Virus record (IMG/VR): IMGVR_UViG_3300001242_000029
Span: 1-57,387 of that record
From: a virus
Direction: 5' to 3' (one strand)
DNA: 57,387 nucleotides
Shown in pieces: positions 2,504-29,473 of this stretch. A program made the translations under genes and the position numbers. The notes under the pieces are model-generated. The model saw only the letters and a program-made list of their open reading frames with translations, did no database searches and was not told the origin of the DNA. Position 1 is the first letter of the stretch. The number at the start of each line of letters is the position of its first letter.

Positions 2504-3059
2504 TCTTTTTCCCCCTTTTTAAAGAAAGAATATACTTTTTTATTTTTATTTGTATTTTTGTTGCTGTTTTATTATTCACTTTCACGGCTTCTGTTGAACC
2601 GCAATAAATACAACGTCCGTCTCTTTCTTTTATTTGGGTTGAAATTGTGCTAAACCAACGTTCTCCGTATTCTTGCATTCCTCCTTGCCAATTTGGGGCA
2701 AATTCTCCTACTCTTGGGTTATTTCTTTTTGTTTCCCTCATTTTTTGTTTGGTTTTTTCAGAATGTTTAAATCCCAGGAGCGTGTTTGCTATTTTTTGTT
2801 TAGTTTCTTCCGATAATACTCTGGACCTGTTGCTTTTTATAACTTTTTCGCGGTGTTCTTGCGTTTTATTATACGTTGTAAAAAATCCACGTTGTTTGGC
2901 GATTTCTCGCATTTTATCTCGGGTTTCCACCGAAACTTGCCGCCCCCTTACCCAATGTCCTTTTAAATACGGATTCCATTTCTTTTTTGGGATGCTCCAT
3001 TTTACTGGCATCCCACATCCACATTTGCATAATGGCGCTTTCTTTTTTCTAATTACCAT
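2481..3059 (-). CDS. HNH-type homing endonuclease with NUMOD3-like repeats, probably 3'-truncated
   Basis: This 192-residue protein has an N-terminal CKCGCG zinc-like motif, then repeated NUMOD3-like DNA-binding segments (for example SEETKQKIA and SEKTKQKMRE), then the start of an HNH fold with CIYCG near residue 150. The His-rich part that should follow is absent and is replaced by a lysine-rich AT-biased tail, so the nuclease is probably inactive. AGGAGG precedes the ATG. It lies between an intact Rad50-like gene end and a second, diverged copy of that end, as expected after homing-type recombination. Confidence 0.75.
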   Translation of the reverse strand: MVIRKKKAPLCKCGCGMPVKWSIPKKKWNPYLKGHWVRGRQVSVETRDKMREIAKQRGFFTTYNKTQEHREKVIKSNRSRVLSEETKQKIANTLLGFKHSEKTKQKMRETKRNNPRVGEFAPNWQGGMQEYGERWFSTISTQIKERDGRCIYCGSTEAVKVNNKTATKIQIKIKKYILSLKRGKKKIKESSD

Positions 3060-3105
3060 GTTCCTCCTATAATAATATATTTCGCGCCATTATACCTTAA
3101 TTATT

Positions 3106-3726
3106 TTAATAAAGCAAGTCTTTTACTTGATGAACCTTTGAAACATTATTCTGCATTGTAACCTTATAAATTTTATCGGCATACCTGCTCATTATTTCTG
3201 AATGGGTTATCATTATAATCTGCAATCCTAATTTTTCAGAAAGCATTTTAACCAGTGCGCCGACCCTTTCATGATGATTAACAGAAAGATGCTTAAACGG
3301 CTCGTCAAGTAACAATGTATTCCGGTATTTTTTTACCATACTCCAAGAAGCACACCGTAAAGCAAATGCAGCCACATCTGCAGCCCCCAGTCCCGAAAAC
3401 AATAAAGGGTCAACCAATTCTTCTTGTTTTTTGAAGAACAGGTCACACTCAGTTTTATCCCTGCGTAGTTCAAACTTTACAAGAAACTCATACGCTTGGT
3501 CAAACACGGTATTCAAACCAGTTGAAACCATATCCCCGAGCTGAAATTCTAATTGTCCTTGTGTTTGTATCGCAATTTCTTTGATGAACTCAAGCGCCCG
3601 CTGTTCCTGTAATAAAAGAACCTTTTGCTTTTTAATACTTATTTCTAAGCTTTGAATTTCATTTTGGATGTATTCTTTTTGGGCTTGTTTTTTGTTTAGG
3701 AATGTCCGGAGCTTTTTAAGATTCAT
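3106..3726 (-). CDS. Rad50/SbcC-like ATPase, separate C-terminal lobe
   Basis: Starting at ATG 3726, the 206-residue protein has an N-terminal coiled coil (about 1-60), an ABC signature-like segment FSGLGAAD (110-117), Walker B LLLDEP (138-143) and a switch His in ITHSE. There is no Walker A. This is the C-terminal half of a Rad50/gp46-type ATPase; the N-terminal half with Walker A is a separate gene at 6012-7133. The two should pair to form one ATPase head. The start overlaps the preceding coiled-coil gene by 11 bases. Earlier in-frame ATGs lie deeper inside that gene and are less likely. Confidence 0.8.
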   Translation of the reverse strand: MNLKKLRTFLNKKQAQKEYIQNEIQSLEISIKKQKVLLLQEQRALEFIKEIAIQTQGQLEFQLGDMVSTGLNTVFDQAYEFLVKFELRRDKTECDLFFKKQEELVDPLLFSGLGAADVAAFALRCASWSMVKKYRNTLLLDEPFKHLSVNHHERVGALVKMLSEKLGLQIIMITHSEIMSRYADKIYKVTMQNNVSKVHQVKDLLY

Positions 3727-4018
3727 CGGACTCACCAGATTCATTGGCATCCTCAATCTTTGCATATTCTTCTTCGATTTCTTTCATTAAGGCATTCAGA
3801 CGTGCATTGGTTTCATCAATAGCTGCTTGCAATTCTTCTACGACTTTGTTAGCTTCTTCCAGTATTTCTTCTTCCGTTTCTTTGTCTACCTTGAGTATTT
3901 CATTCAGTTTTTTAAAATCAGACTCCAATGACCCTTTTACCCGCTCAGCTTTTTTACCGAGGTTTTCCATCTCTTCTTGATATCTAAGCAGGGTGCTTTT
4001 AATTTGTGTTTGGTTCAT
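3716..4018 (-). CDS. Small acidic coiled-coil protein
   Basis: This 100-residue protein is almost all charged helix with heptad-like spacing and ends in an acidic Glu/Ser/Asp tail. AAAGGA precedes the ATG. It lies between the Mre11-like gene and the C-terminal Rad50 lobe, overlapping the latter. It may belong to the same complex, for example as a coiled-coil extension. No enzyme motif is visible and the role is inferred only from position. Confidence 0.65.
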   Translation of the reverse strand: MNQTQIKSTLLRYQEEMENLGKKAERVKGSLESDFKKLNEILKVDKETEEEILEEANKVVEELQAAIDETNARLNALMKEIEEEYAKIEDANESGESDES

Positions 4019-4140
4019 TTGTCATCCTTTGCTCTATTTCTATTGATCCCAGTGAGTGTCCTCAAAATCATTTTAAAGCATTTATTCATATCATTTTCAA
4101 ACGACACTTCTGATTGCCAGTATAACCAGTGCCAAAACAT
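4015..4140 (-). CDS. Tiny protein of 41 residues, unknown
   Basis: AGGTGA lies five bases before the ATG at 4138-4140, and the stop overlaps the next start as ATGA. The product is aromatic at its N-terminus (WHWLYW) and basic at its C-terminus. The ribosome site and the four-base overlap support translation. No family is recognised. Confidence 0.5.
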   Translation of the reverse strand: MFWHWLYWQSEVSFENDMNKCFKMILRTLTGINRNRAKDDK

Positions 4141-4218
4141 AAATCACCTATTCACCCATTTTAAATATGACAGTCTCCCATGTTATTTTCTTGAAATGGC
4201 GCCTTGATGTTCATTTTA

Positions 4219-4440
4219 CTAATCCTTTACATCTTCTTTTGCAGGTTTGTCAAAATATTCTTTTAAAGGTACTGTATTTTTTCTTTTCTTTTTCCTGGAT
4301 AATAAAACTTTTAGAGCTTCATCAAATTTCTCTCCTACGGTAACTTCCTGATCAAACATACAATCATTCAACGGAGCATACACATTAAACCAATTTTTGC
4401 GGATGTGTTTTAGCACCCTGGCAGCTTCTTGTTTTTTCAT
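4219..4440 (-). CDS. Small basic protein, unknown
   Basis: The ATG at 4440 overlaps the stop of the metallophosphoesterase gene as ATGA; an upstream in-frame ATG four codons earlier lies inside that gene. The 73-residue product has a central run of basic residues (RKKKRK). It is cotranslated with the Mre11-like gene, but nothing in its sequence points to a function. Confidence 0.6.
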   Translation of the reverse strand: MKKQEAARVLKHIRKNWFNVYAPLNDCMFDQEVTVGEKFDEALKVLLSRKKKRKNTVPLKEYFDKPAKEDVKD

Positions 4441-5339
4441 TTTCCCACCCATTTTAAAATTATTTCTTTGATGCTTTGGGGTACTTTATTTTTTTCCAAA
4501 GCACGTTCAATATTTTCTTCAAAAGACAGGCTGACTTTCCATGACCCTTGCAGTTTCTCCATAAAATCGTTTACTTGTTTTTCTTTTCTTTTCCGGTCTT
4601 TAATGTGTTCTCTGGACATCGCATTTTCGTTAATCCTTAGGTAATGGATGTCAAACGAGTTATCTTCCGCGTACCAAAGGAATACACATGGCTTGTGGTC
4701 CATTTGATCTGCATCATGGCGGGTTAAAGACCCTGGATTGATAAGAAGTTGCTTGCCCTTTTTAGCCGTAAATGTTTTATGATTATGCCCGGTTATAATT
4801 AGATCAGCCCCTGGAAATAAATCAAATAATTTATTGCATTGCGGGTCTTCACAGCCTGGGTATGGTAATTCATCTTTCCAGGTCATCGTATGCAGTATAA
4901 CTGCTTTTTTCTTTACCACTTTCCCAGTGGCATAATCACGCAGTCGTACTGGGTATAAGGAATCTAATTCTACCCCCCAATGGCCAGCATTTAAAATAGG
5001 ATGAATCAATTCAGACCTGAAAAGTATTTCGATACCTGTTTTATGCAACAGCCCAAGACTGTGTTGTGCAAGATCATGATTCCCGATAATTGTTTGCATG
5101 TGTTTAGGAAAATGGGCAAAACAAGCATTAATTAAATTTGGGGATGCTTTCCAATGGTCAAACAGGTCACCAGAAAGCTCTACGGGGCATTCATGCTCTT
5201 TTTGTAGCTCAGATATTTGGTCCACTTTATTCCACTGTGCTTCCCAAATAGAATCCAGGCGGCAAGGGGGAGTTCTTTCTTCCTCCATCAAATGCCAATC
5301 CCCTGAGATAATGGCATCTGCTTTTCTTTTCTTTTTCAT
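4437..5339 (-). CDS. Mre11/SbcD-like metallophosphoesterase nuclease
   Basis: The 300-residue protein carries the ordered calcineurin-like motifs: DWHL near residue 15, GDLFDHW near 57, GNHD near 87 and GHNH near 189. These bind two metal ions. With the split Rad50-like ATPase genes on either side (3106 and 6012), it should form an SbcCD/gp46-gp47-type complex that processes DNA ends for recombination. The C-terminal helical part may be the ATPase-contact region. AAGAGG precedes the ATG. Confidence 0.88.
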   Translation of the reverse strand: MKKKRKADAIISGDWHLMEEERTPPCRLDSIWEAQWNKVDQISELQKEHECPVELSGDLFDHWKASPNLINACFAHFPKHMQTIIGNHDLAQHSLGLLHKTGIEILFRSELIHPILNAGHWGVELDSLYPVRLRDYATGKVVKKKAVILHTMTWKDELPYPGCEDPQCNKLFDLFPGADLIITGHNHKTFTAKKGKQLLINPGSLTRHDADQMDHKPCVFLWYAEDNSFDIHYLRINENAMSREHIKDRKRKEKQVNDFMEKLQGSWKVSLSFEENIERALEKNKVPQSIKEIILKWVGK

Positions 5340-7365: not shown

Positions 7366-8148
7366 TTACTCCCTCTCATCCATAAAATATTCTGTGATTA
7401 TTTGTTGCCAGGTTTTACCGATCTTGCCTTTATGCGGATAACCCGGCAAGGCCCTTTTCGGGTATTTCTTTTTATGCCATTTCAAAATCTTTTTATATTT
7501 TCTTTTCCCGAATACTTCTGCTTTTTCTTTTTCATTCGGGTGGATGTATTTGGATGGTAACCGGGTACTTGGCGGACATTCCAGATAATCGGCCAGGTTC
7601 CGGAGTAAAGCAACCAAATCAATAAATTTATGCAGGCCGTATCGTTTGTATGTCTTGTAGACTTTTCCTTCAAAAGAATTCGCTTGAAAATGCAACACAC
7701 CACGGATAAGCCCTTTTCCTTCTGGGCCGGATAATTCACTTTTCAATTTATGCTGATGGTCTAAGGTGGTATCACCCCATTTAATTCTTTGTTTTATAAT
7801 AGGGCAATATCCATCCTGGAGCAGGTAAAGTTTTTGTTTTAATTCTTGGGCAGTTTTTTGCGTTAATTGGATGCAATCTGGGGCATGCCTTTCCTTATCT
7901 ACAAACTTGCCCCAATCTATTTTTTTTACTGGCCTGTTTCTGGCAGTTATTATCGGTAGTATTGGTGGTTTTACTTCTGGTTTGGTGGTAATATGTTTTA
8001 CGGATATTTTTACTTTCCGTTTGGGTTTTACTTCTGGTTTGGTGGTAATATGTTTTACGGATATTTTTACTTTCCGTTTGGGTTTTATTCCTGGTTTTGT
8101 TTTTCGTTTCATTACCCGTTTCATTATCCGTTTCATTATCCGTTTCAT
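7366..8148 (-). CDS. Endonuclease VII-like Holliday junction resolvase with a repeated basic N-terminus
   Basis: The 260-residue protein has a nuclease core with LDHQHK (near residue 129) and RGVLH with a following AN/EG pattern, as in recombination endonuclease VII (T4 gp49 type). Only one of the usual zinc cysteines is obvious (CPI), so zinc binding may be lost. The first 60 residues are basic tandem repeats: MKRI/MKRV heptads and two copies of a 19-residue unit encoded by an exact 57-bp repeat. Resolution of branched DNA before packaging is the likely job. Confidence 0.72.
   Translation of the reverse strand: MKRIMKRIMKRVMKRKTKPGIKPKRKVKISVKHITTKPEVKPKRKVKISVKHITTKPEVKPPILPIITARNRPVKKIDWGKFVDKERHAPDCIQLTQKTAQELKQKLYLLQDGYCPIIKQRIKWGDTTLDHQHKLKSELSGPEGKGLIRGVLHFQANSFEGKVYKTYKRYGLHKFIDLVALLRNLADYLECPPSTRLPSKYIHPNEKEKAEVFGKRKYKKILKWHKKKYPKRALPGYPHKGKIGKTWQQIITEYFMDERE
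7969..8082 (-). repeat. Two exact 57-bp tandem repeats inside the endonuclease VII-like gene
   Basis: Units at 7969-8025 and 8026-8082 are identical as read and keep the reading frame, adding 19 basic residues each. Exact identity suggests recent expansion. Confidence 0.85.
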
Positions 8149-14929: not shown

Positions 14930-14983
14930 TCTTTTCTCCAGTTTATAATTTTAATTTTCTACATCTTTACCGTATTCTGTAAT

Positions 14984-15013
14984 ATTATACAAAATGATTT
15001 TAATTTTTTTAAA
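14984..15013 (-). promoter_or_regulatory. Minus-strand promoter-like element 1
   Basis: On the minus strand TTTAAA and an extended -10, TGTATAAT, are 18 bases apart (TATAAT complement at 14984-14989). It lies in an AT-rich gap of 110 bases before the DnaJ-type and clamp loader genes and matches two further minus-strand copies almost base for base, including TTAAAATCATTTTG between the boxes. Confidence 0.65.
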
Positions 15014-15039
15014 AGTTGTTTAAAAGTTGTCATCTTTAT

Positions 15040-18990: not shown

Positions 18991-20322
18991 TTATTTTGTT
19001 AAATCGATACCTTCTTTTTTCCATTGTGCTTCATAATCATGTGGGGCATACTCAAAAACTAAATTGCCCTTACTGTCCTGGTCAACCGGAACAACTTTCC
19101 CATGGAAATAGTTCCTGGGATTTCCAGGACTGTGTAAATTATTCCAGGACCGTTGTGTGATTTGTTTTAGATTGGTGTTCCGGACCCTGGCGTGTGACAT
19201 TCCAACAGTACATGGGTGGTCATTGGCAAAACGCCATTCTTCCAGGTATGTTTCTTTACCACTGTTGTACACTTTATCAAAATAAAGCCTTTCAAGCTTT
19301 CCTGTTTTGTGATATGTTTTCCTGATTTCTTTCAGGTGGTATGTCAATTGGGATGTAGTCCAGTTTTGCATTTCCGGGTTCTTTTTAAAATTATCCGGCA
19401 TGGCACAACATGATCCAGAGGTGTTCAACTCTTTAAAGTCAGGGTCACTGATCCCACAAACCAAATTATTTTCAATGCAGAATTTATAGATCTTTTTGAT
19501 ATATGGCTCTTTTACAAGCCTATTGAGCCTCCGGTACCCGCCACGTTCTTTTGGGCTGAGCACCGTGTAATATTCATGCATATTTTTTATCCCGGTTAAC
19601 TGGCCCAGCCAATCATACCTGGTCTTCATTCCGATATTTGCTCTTGCATCCATGGCAAAAAACTCGCAACTGACACCGTTAATACCAGCAGCGAGGGCAT
19701 CGTTTAATAGTTCATCAAGGCCAACATCAGAAATTCCAACAATAAAAGGACGTAATCTGAGGATAGTCCAATACCCCATATCACTGAGTTCTTTCAATGC
19801 TTTTAATCTTTTTGTTGGGCTTGGCACCCCAATTTCAACCCGTTTTGCCATATCATCATCACGGGTTATAATGGATGCCTGGAAAGCAAAATTTGACTGT
19901 TTTTGGTATTTCTCAAATGTTTTGAGGTAGTTCTTTTCTAAGATTGTTGGTCCTTTGAATGAAAAGAGGGTTGGGTAATTTAATTTCCCCAGCCCTTTAA
20001 TTAATTCAAGCCCGGTTCCGTTTGTTTTTTCAAATGAACAAAATGGATCTGCCAATCCACCCCAATGCAACAAGAATTTTCTTTTATAAAAATGCCGGTA
20101 CATTACATCTTGCGGTGATTCACCATTCATTTTTTTCAACAACCTTTTTACATTCACTTGTTTGAGTTCATGTGTTTTCATGCTTGGGTTGTTGCTCTTA
20201 AAGAAGTATGAAAAACAATTATGCACAAGCACACCATTGGCATAATAATTATTATGTTTAGACGTTTCAATGTTATGGACTCTGAAAGTCCCTTTTTTTA
20301 TAACAATGCTTTTTATGCGCAT
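18991..20322 (-). CDS. Split-intein C-terminal part plus C-extein of a radical SAM protein
   Basis: The ATG at 20322 follows AAAGGA seven bases away. Residues 1-35 are a short IntC with VHNIE, YYANGVLVHN and the junction Asn-Cys (N35, C36). The remaining 408 residues are the C-extein, similar to the SplB/Rv2578c-like radical SAM group. C36 becomes the third cysteine of the cluster motif after trans-splicing with the N-part at 20558-21439. The start overlaps the nuclease frame by ten bases. The activity may be DNA repair of the photoproduct lyase type, but the substrate is not known. Confidence 0.85.
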   Translation of the reverse strand: MRIKSIVIKKGTFRVHNIETSKHNNYYANGVLVHNCFSYFFKSNNPSMKTHELKQVNVKRLLKKMNGESPQDVMYRHFYKRKFLLHWGGLADPFCSFEKTNGTGLELIKGLGKLNYPTLFSFKGPTILEKNYLKTFEKYQKQSNFAFQASIITRDDDMAKRVEIGVPSPTKRLKALKELSDMGYWTILRLRPFIVGISDVGLDELLNDALAAGINGVSCEFFAMDARANIGMKTRYDWLGQLTGIKNMHEYYTVLSPKERGGYRRLNRLVKEPYIKKIYKFCIENNLVCGISDPDFKELNTSGSCCAMPDNFKKNPEMQNWTTSQLTYHLKEIRKTYHKTGKLERLYFDKVYNSGKETYLEEWRFANDHPCTVGMSHARVRNTNLKQITQRSWNNLHSPGNPRNYFHGKVVPVDQDSKGNLVFEYAPHDYEAQWKKEGIDLTK

Positions 20323-21187
20323 TTTGCAATCCTTTCGGTAAGCAACTTACTAAACTGGGTGACAGGTAATTTTGTTTCGTCTCTATGTATACGAACAGTA
20401 ATTATGCCATGTTTTTGATACAACCAATTATCACGTTCATGATGTTTTTCTTGCCCCTTTTCTGTATAATGCTTACTGTGCCCATCATACTCTATTACAA
20501 TATTTTTATCAGGCAAGAAAAAATCAAGCGTGTATTCTCTTTTTGGTCCTGGTATTTTCATTTCATGAATAAAGTTTTCACCGAGCACACGTAGTGCTTT
20601 CCGTACCTTTTTTCACCGATTGAAATTCTTCCATTTTCAAGCCATGTTTTTACTGATTTTTGCAATGTCTTTCTTCTGATGGTTGGGTCCTTCATCGGAT
20701 TGTTTGTCAGCATCCTATGTTTTGCGTCTGGTTTTTCTTTTCCTAACCAATATGGAGTTAATTCACCACTGGCATACCGTTTTTTTAATGTTTTCGATGT
20801 TCTTTCTGTGACACCAGCAACCCACCTTGGATTATTTTTCTTCATGCGTTTTGATACATTTTTTCTAAATTGGTATTCTTGGTTCCGTGCAACTAAATAC
20901 GGCTTTTCTACAAAATCAACTTCATCAGTTAGCTTTAAGTCTTTTACGCATTTCCATTCAGAATTATTCACCCAAACAGGATGTTCACCTGTGATATTTA
21001 ACTTCCGCCCATTTTCAAGTTCAATCTCATAAATCTCATGCACTGTCCTTTCCATGGTGGCTGTTATTTCTGTTACCTCCATTTGCATTGTTTCGACGTT
21101 CCTGCTGTAAATACTATCTCCTACCATAAGATGTTCAATTGGTTTATTCCCACCAACAACAGAAATTGGAGTCCCTGCAATAGTGCA
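20218..21187 (-). other. Split intein locus, IntN to IntC
   Basis: The splice junctions are Cys1 encoded at 21185-21187 and Asn at 20218-20220, followed by Cys+1 at 20215-20217. IntN carries block A (CTIAGTPISV) and block B (ITGEHPVWV). IntC carries block F/G (YYANGVLVHN). The pieces lie in different frames, with a homing-nuclease frame between them and a separate ribosome site for IntC. This is the arrangement known as a fractured gene. Confidence 0.85.
20313..20588 (-). CDS. Vsr/EDxHD-like homing endonuclease domain
   Basis: The frame encodes a PD-(D/E)xK-type nuclease: LDFFLPDKNIVIEYDGH gives the D and E-Y-D-G core, then HHERDNWLYQKHGI and TVRIH. This is the very-short-patch-repair/DUF559-like fold used by split-intein homing nucleases. 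A GTG at 20588 could start it, but the sequence continues upstream to a run of six A (20620-20625), where a -1 shift would fuse it to the N-part frame. It probably promotes movement of the split intein. Intact catalytic residues suggest recent activity. Confidence 0.75.
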   Translation of the reverse strand: MLGENFIHEMKIPGPKREYTLDFFLPDKNIVIEYDGHSKHYTEKGQEKHHERDNWLYQKHGIITVRIHRDETKLPVTQFSKLLTERIAKCA

Positions 21188-21439
21188 ATAGCAACAGCCG
21201 AGTCCACAGTAACTATACTGATCAAATGTCATCGGCATACTGCAATCAGGTAATTCACTGCTCACCCGTGGGGAACCATATGTTCCGTGGGCTGTCCTGT
21301 CTGTATTCTCAAGAAGCCATTTGTTTGCTTCTTTTAAGATGTCGGAGTTTAGTGGAGGTAATATTCCGTTTCCGATCTGATCTTCTTTCGTCATGTTCTG
21401 GCTCTGTTTGGTACTTGAATTTTCGTTTTTCCGAATCAT
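20558..21439 (-). CDS. N-extein of a radical SAM protein plus IntN and NUMOD-like segment
   Basis: The 293-residue frame has an N-extein (1-84) ending in YCGLGCCY, then IntN from C85 (CTIAGTPIS, block B near 152), then a basic region with NUMOD3-like modules (NNPMKDPTIRRK) that belongs to the nuclease. Splicing joins Y84 to the C-extein Cys and recreates C-x3-C-x2-C, the radical SAM cluster motif. AGGGGAAA precedes the ATG, which lies inside the upstream gene (131-base overlap). Without splicing the cluster motif is incomplete, so enzyme activity should depend on the intein. Confidence 0.85.
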   Translation of the reverse strand: MIRKNENSSTKQSQNMTKEDQIGNGILPPLNSDILKEANKWLLENTDRTAHGTYGSPRVSSELPDCSMPMTFDQYSYCGLGCCYCTIAGTPISVVGGNKPIEHLMVGDSIYSRNVETMQMEVTEITATMERTVHEIYEIELENGRKLNITGEHPVWVNNSEWKCVKDLKLTDEVDFVEKPYLVARNQEYQFRKNVSKRMKKNNPRWVAGVTERTSKTLKKRYASGELTPYWLGKEKPDAKHRMLTNNPMKDPTIRRKTLQKSVKTWLENGRISIGEKRYGKHYVCSVKTLFMK

Positions 21440-22636: not shown

Positions 22637-23461
22637 CTATTCCATGTTGGGATGTTTTTCTTCTTTGGATTTGATCTTCCCGTTTTTTTCGGTAATTGTG
22701 ATCCCTTCCTTTTTCAACTGCTTCATATGGCCATGCAGCCTGGCAGTGAGTTGTTTCACATCCTTTCCGGGAAATTTTTCAGTGAGTGTTTTGAGGATGT
22801 CTTCTTCTGTGGTACCTTTGAAGAGCAATTCATCAATCACACCAACAGCAGAAGAAAGCAACCGGCCGTATCTGGATTTTCCAGCTTCTTTTTTCGGGCC
22901 TTTTGCAGGTTTTTCAGCCGGGTCAATTCCGAGGATTTTCAGCATTTTGGCTTTCAATTCACGTGGGCCGGCAAGACCTTTATAATCACTGAGGCCTTTG
23001 CGCAGTTTTTTGAATTCATCATTGTTGTTCACCAGGATTTTCATGTCGTCAAGCTTCTTTGCTGCTTTTACCTGGTCGGCCAGGGACAGTTCCGGACCAT
23101 CATCATCTGCATCATCATCTGCATCATCATCTGCATCATCATCTGCATCATCATCTGCATCATCATCTGCATCATCATCTGCATCATCATCTGCATCATC
23201 ATCTGCATCTTCTGCTTCCGGGATTTCAACCCCCAGGATTTCAAGCACCTCTGCCAAGTTTTCAGAAATTTCATCGTCTTCAGTGAGTTCTGCGGCGGCC
23301 TCTGTCACTTTGTCACAGATTTCCTCAATGGACCCTTTATTCAGTTCAACAGGGTTTCCATCATCATCTTCCAGGTCAAGCAGGCCCTGGAGCTCATCCG
23401 CAGCTTTTCGCAGCTTTTTCGGGTCAATCTGCGGTGCTTTTTCTTTACTTTTCTTTCCCAT
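22637..23461 (-). CDS. Acidic-repeat protein with a wHTH-like C-terminal module
   Basis: The 274-residue protein has a helical acidic N-terminal part, a run of Asp/Ala repeats encoded by nine 12-bp units (about residues 85-125), and a C-terminal module beginning RYGRLLSSAVGVID and ending LKKEGITITEKNG. The same module ends the gene at 33728-34411. It looks like a small winged-helix or modulator domain. AAGGAG precedes the ATG, and a promoter-like element lies 80 bases upstream; a terminator follows. It is probably highly expressed; function unknown. Confidence 0.6.
   Translation of the reverse strand: MGKKSKEKAPQIDPKKLRKAADELQGLLDLEDDDGNPVELNKGSIEEICDKVTEAAAELTEDDEISENLAEVLEILGVEIPEAEDADDDADDDADDDADDDADDDADDDADDDADDDADDDGPELSLADQVKAAKKLDDMKILVNNNDEFKKLRKGLSDYKGLAGPRELKAKMLKILGIDPAEKPAKGPKKEAGKSRYGRLLSSAVGVIDELLFKGTTEEDILKTLTEKFPGKDVKQLTARLHGHMKQLKKEGITITEKNGKIKSKEEKHPNME
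23101..23208 (-). repeat. Nine 12-bp tandem repeats encoding Asp-Ala units
   Basis: Nine identical units of CATCATCTGCAT (plus-strand reading) lie head to tail. They keep the frame, so length changes add or remove four acidic residues at a time. Slippage during replication is expected here. Confidence 0.95.
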
Positions 23462-23543
23462 TGTCGTTCTCCTTTTTTCTTTGTTACTGTTAGTAACTCT
23501 TGGTTAAATTGGAATATGATTAAATTCATTTCCTCGTCATTAT

Positions 23544-23572
23544 ATTATACAAAACAATTTTAATTTTTTAAA
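23544..23572 (-). promoter_or_regulatory. Minus-strand promoter-like element 2
   Basis: TTTAAA and TGTATAAT are 17 bases apart on the minus strand, with TTAAAATTGTTTTG between them. It precedes the acidic-repeat gene by about 80 bases and matches elements 1 and 3. Confidence 0.65.
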
Positions 23573-23596
23573 AATTTATTTTGCTCCCTCCTTTAT

Positions 23597-28488: not shown

Positions 28489-28498
28489 TAAGCAATAT

Positions 28499-28528
28499 AT
28501 TATACAAAATGATTTTAATTTTTTTAAA
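28499..28528 (-). promoter_or_regulatory. Minus-strand promoter-like element 3
   Basis: TTTAAA and TGTATAAT are 18 bases apart on the minus strand and share the spacer TTAAAATCATTTTG with element 1. It lies between the primase gene end and the primosome gene start, so it would boost replication genes independently of the upstream block. Confidence 0.7.
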
Positions 28529-28537
28529 AATTATTTT

Positions 28538-29473
28538 TTATCCTATTAAACAATCCTCCCCGAGCACATCACGGAGTATTTCCAGGCCCATTTCACCGGG
28601 ATCTATTTTCTTTTTCCCTTCCGGTGTTTGGTAAAGCACCTTCCAAACATCAACCCCAGAGAACAGCAGTTGTTTGTATAGCAAATCGGCTTTGCTTTGG
28701 CCAGCAACATCAGGGTCAAAAAAGATTAGAACCTTTTTCATTTTCATCAACCTGAAGATTTGTTCTTTGGTTAATTCAACCCCGAACCCGCAGATAGCTC
28801 GGTATCCAGCCAAGGTTACTTTCCAAACATCAAACACGCCTTCACAGAGCACTGCTTCATCACCCCCATCATCATTGTAAAAGATATGCTTGTGGTGGAT
28901 AAGTTCCCGGGCCTCCGGACAGGAGATATACTTCAAAGGAGAATTGCCAGACATATCCCTGGTTTGCCAAGAAACAACTTTCCCTTGGTACTTAATCGGA
29001 ATCAAAACCCGGTATGATAAATCCATTTGGTCGATGACCGCGCCTGGCTGAGTTATTTTAAGCTCAAAAAGGGATTCTAATGATAATGCTTCCTTTAAAC
29101 TGAAACCACGTTTTTTGAAGTAAAATTTACCTCCAGGGGACTCGTTTAAGGGCACCGCGTGGGGTAAAATAAATGATTTTCGTTTAAGGGTTAATTTTTT
29201 AGCTGGATTGTGGGACTTCCCTTCATACTTTCTGATCAGTTCTTTCGCCTTTCTCCAGTTTACCCCAAGGAGCGTTTCAATTACTTTCGTAACAGGTTTA
29301 TGTCCGCAACGCCAGCAGAAGAAATATTCTTGTTCGATATTGTATCCCAAATGATTGCCAGGGTTTCCTGTACAATAGGGGCACGGGATATTTATCCACC
29401 CAGGCCGATAATGTGGTGCACCTTCAGGGGCGGAGGAAATACCGTGGTCTTGAAATAACCTAAGCAGGTCCAT
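28538..29473 (-). CDS. DNA primase (zinc finger plus TOPRIM)
   Basis: The 311-residue protein has a DnaG-type zinc finger near the N-terminus (CPYC then CWRC) and a TOPRIM domain with LCEGVFDVWK near 220 and FFDPDVAG near 258. It should lay RNA primers for the phage polymerase. It is short compared with DnaG because the C-terminal helicase-binding domain is absent. AAGGGGG precedes the ATG; its start overlaps the upstream gene by 14 bases. Confidence 0.85.
   Translation of the reverse strand: MDLLRLFQDHGISSAPEGAPHYRPGWINIPCPYCTGNPGNHLGYNIEQEYFFCWRCGHKPVTKVIETLLGVNWRKAKELIRKYEGKSHNPAKKLTLKRKSFILPHAVPLNESPGGKFYFKKRGFSLKEALSLESLFELKITQPGAVIDQMDLSYRVLIPIKYQGKVVSWQTRDMSGNSPLKYISCPEARELIHHKHIFYNDDGGDEAVLCEGVFDVWKVTLAGYRAICGFGVELTKEQIFRLMKMKKVLIFFDPDVAGQSKADLLYKQLLFSGVDVWKVLYQTPEGKKKIDPGEMGLEILRDVLGEDCLIG

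What the first reader, a model, noticed from the sequence alone, without database searches (positions are those of the whole stretch)
18991..21439. Fractured radical SAM gene with a split intein replacing the third cluster cysteine
Two genes encode N- and C-exteins joined only by trans-splicing. The junction is exactly at the third Cys of C-x3-C-x2-C, so the mature iron-sulfur site appears only after splicing. IntN and IntC are about 95 and 35 residues, with a nuclease frame between them and a separate ribosome site for IntC. This matches the fractured-gene arrangement known for split inteins with Vsr-like homing nucleases, but on a radical SAM host gene.
Basis: partly seen in the sequence, partly recalled or inferred. 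Interest (0 to 1): 0.92.

Follow-up and report, generated by a model that had tools for sequence, protein, structure and literature searches.

The report
Split-intein-fractured phage radical SAM gene
A phage radical SAM enzyme is encoded as two separate genes whose protein halves carry a self-splicing split intein that would join them exactly at an iron-binding cysteine; the same trick recurs in other uncultured phages, but here the homing nuclease that normally travels with it looks broken.

Summary
Gene 1 (21439-20558, minus) encodes the N-extein plus IntN. Gene 2 (20322-18991, minus) encodes IntC plus the C-extein. Splicing would give ...CGLGCCY-CFSYFF..., so the third C-x3-C-x2-C cysteine is intein residue +1. 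Of 184 homologous loci fetched (129 distinct sequences), nearly all read straight through this junction. Every family-invariant residue is present across the two window halves.

The finding is not isolated. L116/L146 have the same site and an intact free-standing nuclease gene. L070 is split at the first cluster cysteine. L121 has a split intein at cysteine 1 and a contiguous one at cysteine 3, and its phage has a further fractured radical SAM gene. In L116/L146 the C-half shows 19 synonymous and 0 replacement changes, so the fractured gene is under selection. The intein region there is identical inside diverged flanks, which suggests recent homing.

Corrections: the nuclease is not an intact gene here. 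Its N-terminal part is fused to IntN and the domain is cut by a -1 frameshift at an A6 run, so it is probably decayed. A contiguous intein in a radical SAM family is already curated (NF038136). Trans-splicing is inferred, not shown.

The parts
20558..21439 (-). Gene 1: N-extein + IntN + nuclease-derived tail, 293 aa
   Evidence: upstream sequence AGGGGAAATATCTT-ATG
21188..21439 (-). N-extein, residues 1-84, carrying cluster cysteines 1 and 2 (C78, C82)
   Evidence: 56-58% identical to the N-terminal part of uninterrupted homologues L004-L006
20903..21187 (-). IntN, about 95 residues from Cys85, with block B TGEH
   Evidence: Pfam Intein_splicing E=3.3e-11; 45% identical with IntC to the split intein of L116
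20609..20890 (-). Remnant of the nuclease N-terminal (NUMOD-like) region and its conserved Glu, in frame with IntN
   Evidence: tblastn of the intact L116 nuclease, residues 111-208, 45% identity, E=3e-16, frame -3
20608..20613 (-). A6 run at which the nuclease domain passes from the IntN frame to the -1 frame
   Evidence: PHROG scores rise when the two frames are read as one domain
20313..20612 (-). Rest of the Vsr-like/EDxHD nuclease domain in the -1 frame; possible starts GTG 20588 or ATG 20561, neither with a convincing ribosome site
   Evidence: DUF559 E=1.4e-4; L116 nuclease match, frame -2, E=1e-21; fold of the L116 homologue matches I-Bth0305I
20330..20335 (-). AAAGGA, ribosome-binding site of the IntC gene, inside the nuclease 3' end
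   Evidence: L116 has AAAGGA at the corresponding place
18991..20322 (-). Gene 2: IntC + C-extein, 443 aa
20218..20322 (-). IntC, 35 residues, ends LVHN
   Evidence: TIGR01443 above cut-off
18991..20217 (-). C-extein, begins with Cys+1 (third cluster cysteine), 408 aa
   Evidence: 54-59% identical to L004-L006
18166..18978 (-). Neighbouring TET-associated glycosyltransferase, context for the extein's function
   Evidence: PF20691 E=6.6e-14; phrog_842 E=6.7e-45

Best explanation
This is a naturally split intein of the fractured-gene kind in a phage radical SAM gene. Two separately translated proteins, N-extein-IntN-tail and IntC-C-extein, associate through the Hint fold and splice in trans. The excised intein leaves Cys+1 as the third ligand of the C-x3-C-x2-C cluster, so the [4Fe-4S] site can be complete only after splicing. 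The element once carried a free-standing NUMOD/EDxHD nuclease between the halves, as in L116; in this phage part of that gene has become fused to IntN, and the domain is broken by a -1 frameshift, so the nuclease is probably dead. Splicing survives that decay because IntC has its own start and ribosome site. The enzyme most likely acts in DNA base hypermodification. Shown: anatomy, homology, empty sites, recurrence, selection on the C-half in L116/L146. Inferred: trans-splicing, nuclease loss, substrate.
For: Intein signatures in both halves; empty-site homologues; all 50 residues invariant in the first 17 homologues retained in the window halves; same-site split intein with intact nuclease in L116/L146; IntC start site conserved; 19 synonymous and 0 replacement changes in the L116/L146 C-half gene; identical 2035-base tract around that element with diverged flanks; further cases L070, L121, L258; nuclease fold I-Bth0305I/Vsr; frame break inside the nuclease domain; extein fold nearest spore photoproduct lyase; modification-gene neighbours.
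Against: No splicing experiment. The window lineage has no diverged sister, so selection on its own halves cannot be measured. The IntN protein carries an extra 114-residue tail not present in L116. Read-level support for the frame break was not available. Radical_SAM Pfam score of the joined protein is weak (E=0.058).
Confidence: 0.82

Rival explanations
1. Contiguous intein whose frame breaks are sequencing or assembly errors; the protein is really one chain.
For: The nuclease domain does continue across the A6 run, and the second break lies near an A4 run.
Against: Two breaks would be needed, both inside the intein, with intact exteins; the second assembly agrees; L116/L146, L070, L121 and L258 are split at the same place with separate IntC starts.
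Confidence: 0.07
2. The frame break is programmed: slippage at A6 makes an IntN-nuclease fusion as a minor product, so homing is still possible.
For: A6 run at the exact point where the domain changes frame in the -1 direction; the catalytic parts on both sides are conserved relative to L116.
Against: The A6 run is not in phase for an X-XXY-YYZ heptamer, A6 is short for transcriptional slippage (own knowledge), downstream RNA structure is no better than shuffles (z=-0.57), and L116 uses a free-standing nuclease gene.
Confidence: 0.07
3. A dead gene: the intein no longer splices and the two halves are pseudogene fragments.
For: The nuclease looks decayed.
Against: Both extein frames are intact at full length with every invariant residue; intein catalytic residues are intact; the related fractured gene in L116/L146 is under strong purifying selection.
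Confidence: 0.04

Closest known systems
Fractured genes with split inteins and Vsr-like homing endonucleases (Dassa et al. 2009, doi 10.1093/nar/gkp095; known to me from memory and from citations, paper not held)
   Same: IntN and IntC on separate genes with a Vsr-like nuclease between; L116, L121 and L258 fit directly
   Different: Host gene is a radical SAM enzyme; junction builds the cluster motif; in the window the nuclease is fused to IntN and frame-broken
gp41-1 and NrdJ-1 split inteins
   Same: Similar IntN/IntC sizes and alignable Hint sequence
   Different: Different host proteins; low sequence similarity (bits 21-25)
NF038136, intein-containing Rv2578c-family radical SAM protein
   Same: Intein in a radical SAM gene; window halves align to it on both sides of the intein, consistent with the same site
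   Different: Contiguous intein; scores 35-38 bits against a cut-off of 700; insertion site compared only through profile coordinates
I-Bth0305I, EDxHD homing endonuclease
   Same: Best PDB fold match of the L116 nuclease (3r3p, E=9e-4, TM 0.73 by target length); NUMOD-type DNA-binding region described for the family (PMC3943268)
   Different: I-Bth0305I is intron-encoded; the window copy is not one open frame
Spore photoproduct lyase
   Same: Closest solved fold to the intact homologue L004 (TM about 0.6 by target length)
   Different: 13-15% identity; phage genes sit with DNA modification genes, so a different reaction is likely

Membership tests
Naturally split intein | Nucleophile at intein position 1, block B TxxH, C-terminal HN, Cys/Ser/Thr at +1 | tested here: met
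   C85, TGEH, LVHN, C+1
Naturally split intein | IntN and IntC encoded on separately started ORFs | tested here: met
   IntC frame open only back to 20346, own ATG and AAAGGA site
Naturally split intein | Uninterrupted homologues at the insertion point | tested here: met
Naturally split intein | Trans-splicing activity | not testable with these tools
   needs coexpression
Fractured gene with free-standing homing endonuclease | Intact nuclease ORF between the halves | tested here: not met
   In the window the domain lies in two frames; met in L116, where the ORF is 2986-3918
Fractured gene with free-standing homing endonuclease | Nuclease of the Vsr-like/EDxHD family | tested here: met
   44% identity to the L116 nuclease, whose model matches 3r3p and 1vsr
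Fractured gene with free-standing homing endonuclease | Homing activity | tested here: inconclusive
   Co-conversion-like tract in L116/L146; nothing comparable for the window
Radical SAM superfamily | C-x3-C-x2-C cluster motif | tested here: met
   Only in the joined product, C78-C82-C85
Radical SAM superfamily | Fold and family profile | tested here: met
   NCBIfam radical SAM profiles E=1e-7 to 1e-9 but below curated cut-offs; model of homologue L004 matches radical SAM enzymes; Pfam alone weak
Radical SAM superfamily | Binds [4Fe-4S] and SAM | not testable with these tools
   -
NF038136 intein-containing Rv2578c radical SAM | Score above the curated cut-off of 700 bits | tested here: not met
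   35-38 bits

The most novel reading that the evidence does not exclude
The cluster cysteines of phage radical SAM enzymes are a recurrent home for fractured split inteins, and trans-splicing controls when the iron-sulfur enzyme becomes active during infection, rather than being a neutral scar of homing.
Probability: 0.12. Interest if true: 0.8.

Novelty: new variant of a known kind. Interest (0 to 1): 0.63.

Why it matters
Natural split inteins are few and widely used as protein-joining tools. Here several new ones, in unrelated radical SAM genes, all sit in the cluster motif, at its first or third cysteine, so splicing is coupled to building an enzyme's active site. The set holds apparent stages of one life cycle: empty sites, a split element with signs of recent homing (L116/L146), and a split element with a broken nuclease (the window), which makes the origin and persistence of split inteins testable by comparison. 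Cultured phages in the collection searched had no close relative.

Tried and rejected
Programmed frameshifting: no phased slippery heptamer and no downstream structure. Pfam DUF559 did not gain from reading the two frames together; PHROG models did, and the intact L116 homologue settled it. H2 (MT836326) looked like a second intein in a radical SAM gene but is a HINT domain in an RHS-like protein; H1 (MT835521) is a distant uninterrupted radical SAM gene. L026/L027 appeared stop-ridden but fit TGA read as glycine. Searches of cultured phages with the intact homologue L005, the L116 nuclease and the L116 C-half found nothing. NF038136 could not be sought in bacteria because the window is a virus record, so its exact insertion site was not read directly. 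Dassa et al. 2009 is not held. No paper found on inteins in phage radical SAM genes.

Full report
Observation. The minus strand carries gene 1 at 21439-20558 and gene 2 at 20322-18991, with a third frame ending at 20313 between them. Gene 1 has an N-extein of 84 residues and then an intein N-part beginning CTIAGTPIS; Pfam Intein_splicing matches at E=3.3e-11. Gene 2 begins with a 35-residue IntC ending VLVHN followed by Cys (TIGR01443 above its cut-off). The two parts joined score better than either alone (51 bits). Spliced, the product reads YCGLGCCYCFSYFF, so the third cysteine of C-x3-C-x2-C is the +1 residue.

Empty sites. Uninterrupted relatives are common in IMG/VR: L004, L005 and L006 read ...YC-FAYFFKSNNP or close variants in one frame and are 53-59% identical over both halves. 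Of 184 loci fetched in three radical SAM scans (129 distinct sequences; some contigs were fetched twice), 180 continue C-x3-C-x2-C-Phe; the exceptions are the window lineage, L116, L146 and one with an unusual motif, L064. L070 counts as continuous there because its insertion lies just before the first cysteine. All 50 columns invariant in the first 17 homologues are also kept in the window halves.

The same arrangement elsewhere. L116 has an intein at the same cysteine: gene 1 to 2972, a nuclease ORF 2986-3918 behind a strong ribosome site, then IntC starting at 3896 inside the nuclease 3' end. Its IntN+IntC is 45% and its nuclease 44% identical to the window. L070 is split at cysteine 1 with a different nuclease. 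L121, found on four contigs that are identical where compared, has a split intein at cysteine 1 and a contiguous mini-intein at cysteine 3 of the same gene; its phage has another fractured radical SAM gene, L258, with a further NUMOD-type nuclease.

Function of the fractured form. L116 and L146 come from different metagenomes and are 98.9% identical. Their IntC-C-extein gene differs by 19 synonymous and no replacement changes, against about 78% replacement sites. A C-half lacking two cluster cysteines is therefore maintained, which is best explained if it is spliced to the N-half. A 2035-base stretch spanning the whole element has no differences, while the flanks have 55 differences over the aligned 5 kb; the longest gap in 20,000 random placements was 1137 bases. 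This resembles co-conversion by homing, though other recombination could do it.

The nuclease in the window. Read across the frame break, PHROG homing endonuclease models rise from 36 to 47 bits (phrog_559), 24 to 34 (phrog_9084) and 24 to 35 (phrog_4538). The intact L116 nuclease matches the window in two frames that meet at the A6 run 20613-20608. The N-terminal part, with the Glu that aligns with the conserved Glu of T7 endonuclease I, is in the IntN frame; the rest is in the -1 frame. An AlphaFold2 model of the L116 nuclease (mean pLDDT 69.8, domain core higher) matches I-Bth0305I best and also Vsr. Relative to L116, the window lacks the nuclease N-terminus and its separate start. The most economical reading is decay of the nuclease after fixation of the element, with splicing preserved because IntC has its own start. 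Programmed frameshifting finds no support in sequence or structure.

The host enzyme. The intact homologue L004 models at pLDDT 91 and is nearest spore photoproduct lyase among solved structures. The window gene lies next to a TET-associated glycosyltransferase; L116 lies next to an amino acid:DNA transferase and a P-loop nucleotide kinase of Pfam families PF18724 and PF18751. By tblastn, 67 of the 184 loci have a glycosyltransferase, kinase or transferase of these kinds in the fetched flanks. A role in DNA hypermodification is an inference from this context. Phage hypermodified thymidines made through a 5-hmdU kinase are documented (PMC6449724).

Known or new. Split inteins in fractured genes with Vsr-like nucleases are a known kind, and an intein in a radical SAM family is curated as NF038136. 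What is new here, as far as the held literature shows, is the radical SAM host in phages, the repeated use of cluster cysteines 1 and 3, and a nuclease-decayed intermediate.

Limits. No splicing, cleavage or enzyme assay was possible; reads were not available; the window is a fragment of unknown source; recurrence counts depend on peptide-pattern scans that return at most 80 loci each.

Noticed in passing
L127:3085-6123: A B12-type radical SAM ORF of 1012 aa carries a contiguous intein at the third cluster cysteine (CPFPCSFC|LSENT ... LLAHN|CYWGQ), and a NUMOD/Vsr-like nuclease ORF (4016-4690) sits in an overlapping frame inside it.
   Followed up: partly
L258 (G004:69500-73200): The L121 phage has a second fractured radical SAM gene; the motif there reads GCSAGCNWMC, a spacing unlike C-x3-C-x2-C, and the charge pattern of its IntN and IntC is opposite to the other four.
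   Followed up: partly
L026, L027: Radical SAM relatives readable only if TGA codes for glycine, as in Absconditabacteria/Gracilibacteria; one contig is from the same metagenome as the window's twin assembly.
   Followed up: no
L096, L114: The A1-scan matches of two further radical SAM relatives span one and two stop codons under table 11, and an ORF of L114 seems to read on; not examined for a changed code.
   Followed up: no
window 14975-15030, 23535-23590, 28490-28545: A ~40-bp AT-rich repeat (TATTATACAAAA...ATTTTAATTTTTT) recurs in three places outside the main ORFs and may hold a promoter.
   Followed up: no
window 7967-8097: 57-bp tandem repeat whose copy number differs between the window and the 137-kb assembly.
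   Followed up: no
window 23098-23209: 12-base tandem repeat coding for an acidic (DADD)n stretch in ORF 22637-23461.
   Followed up: no
L064: Radical SAM relative with an unusual cluster region, CGFGFGKQCAGCLYCF.
   Followed up: no
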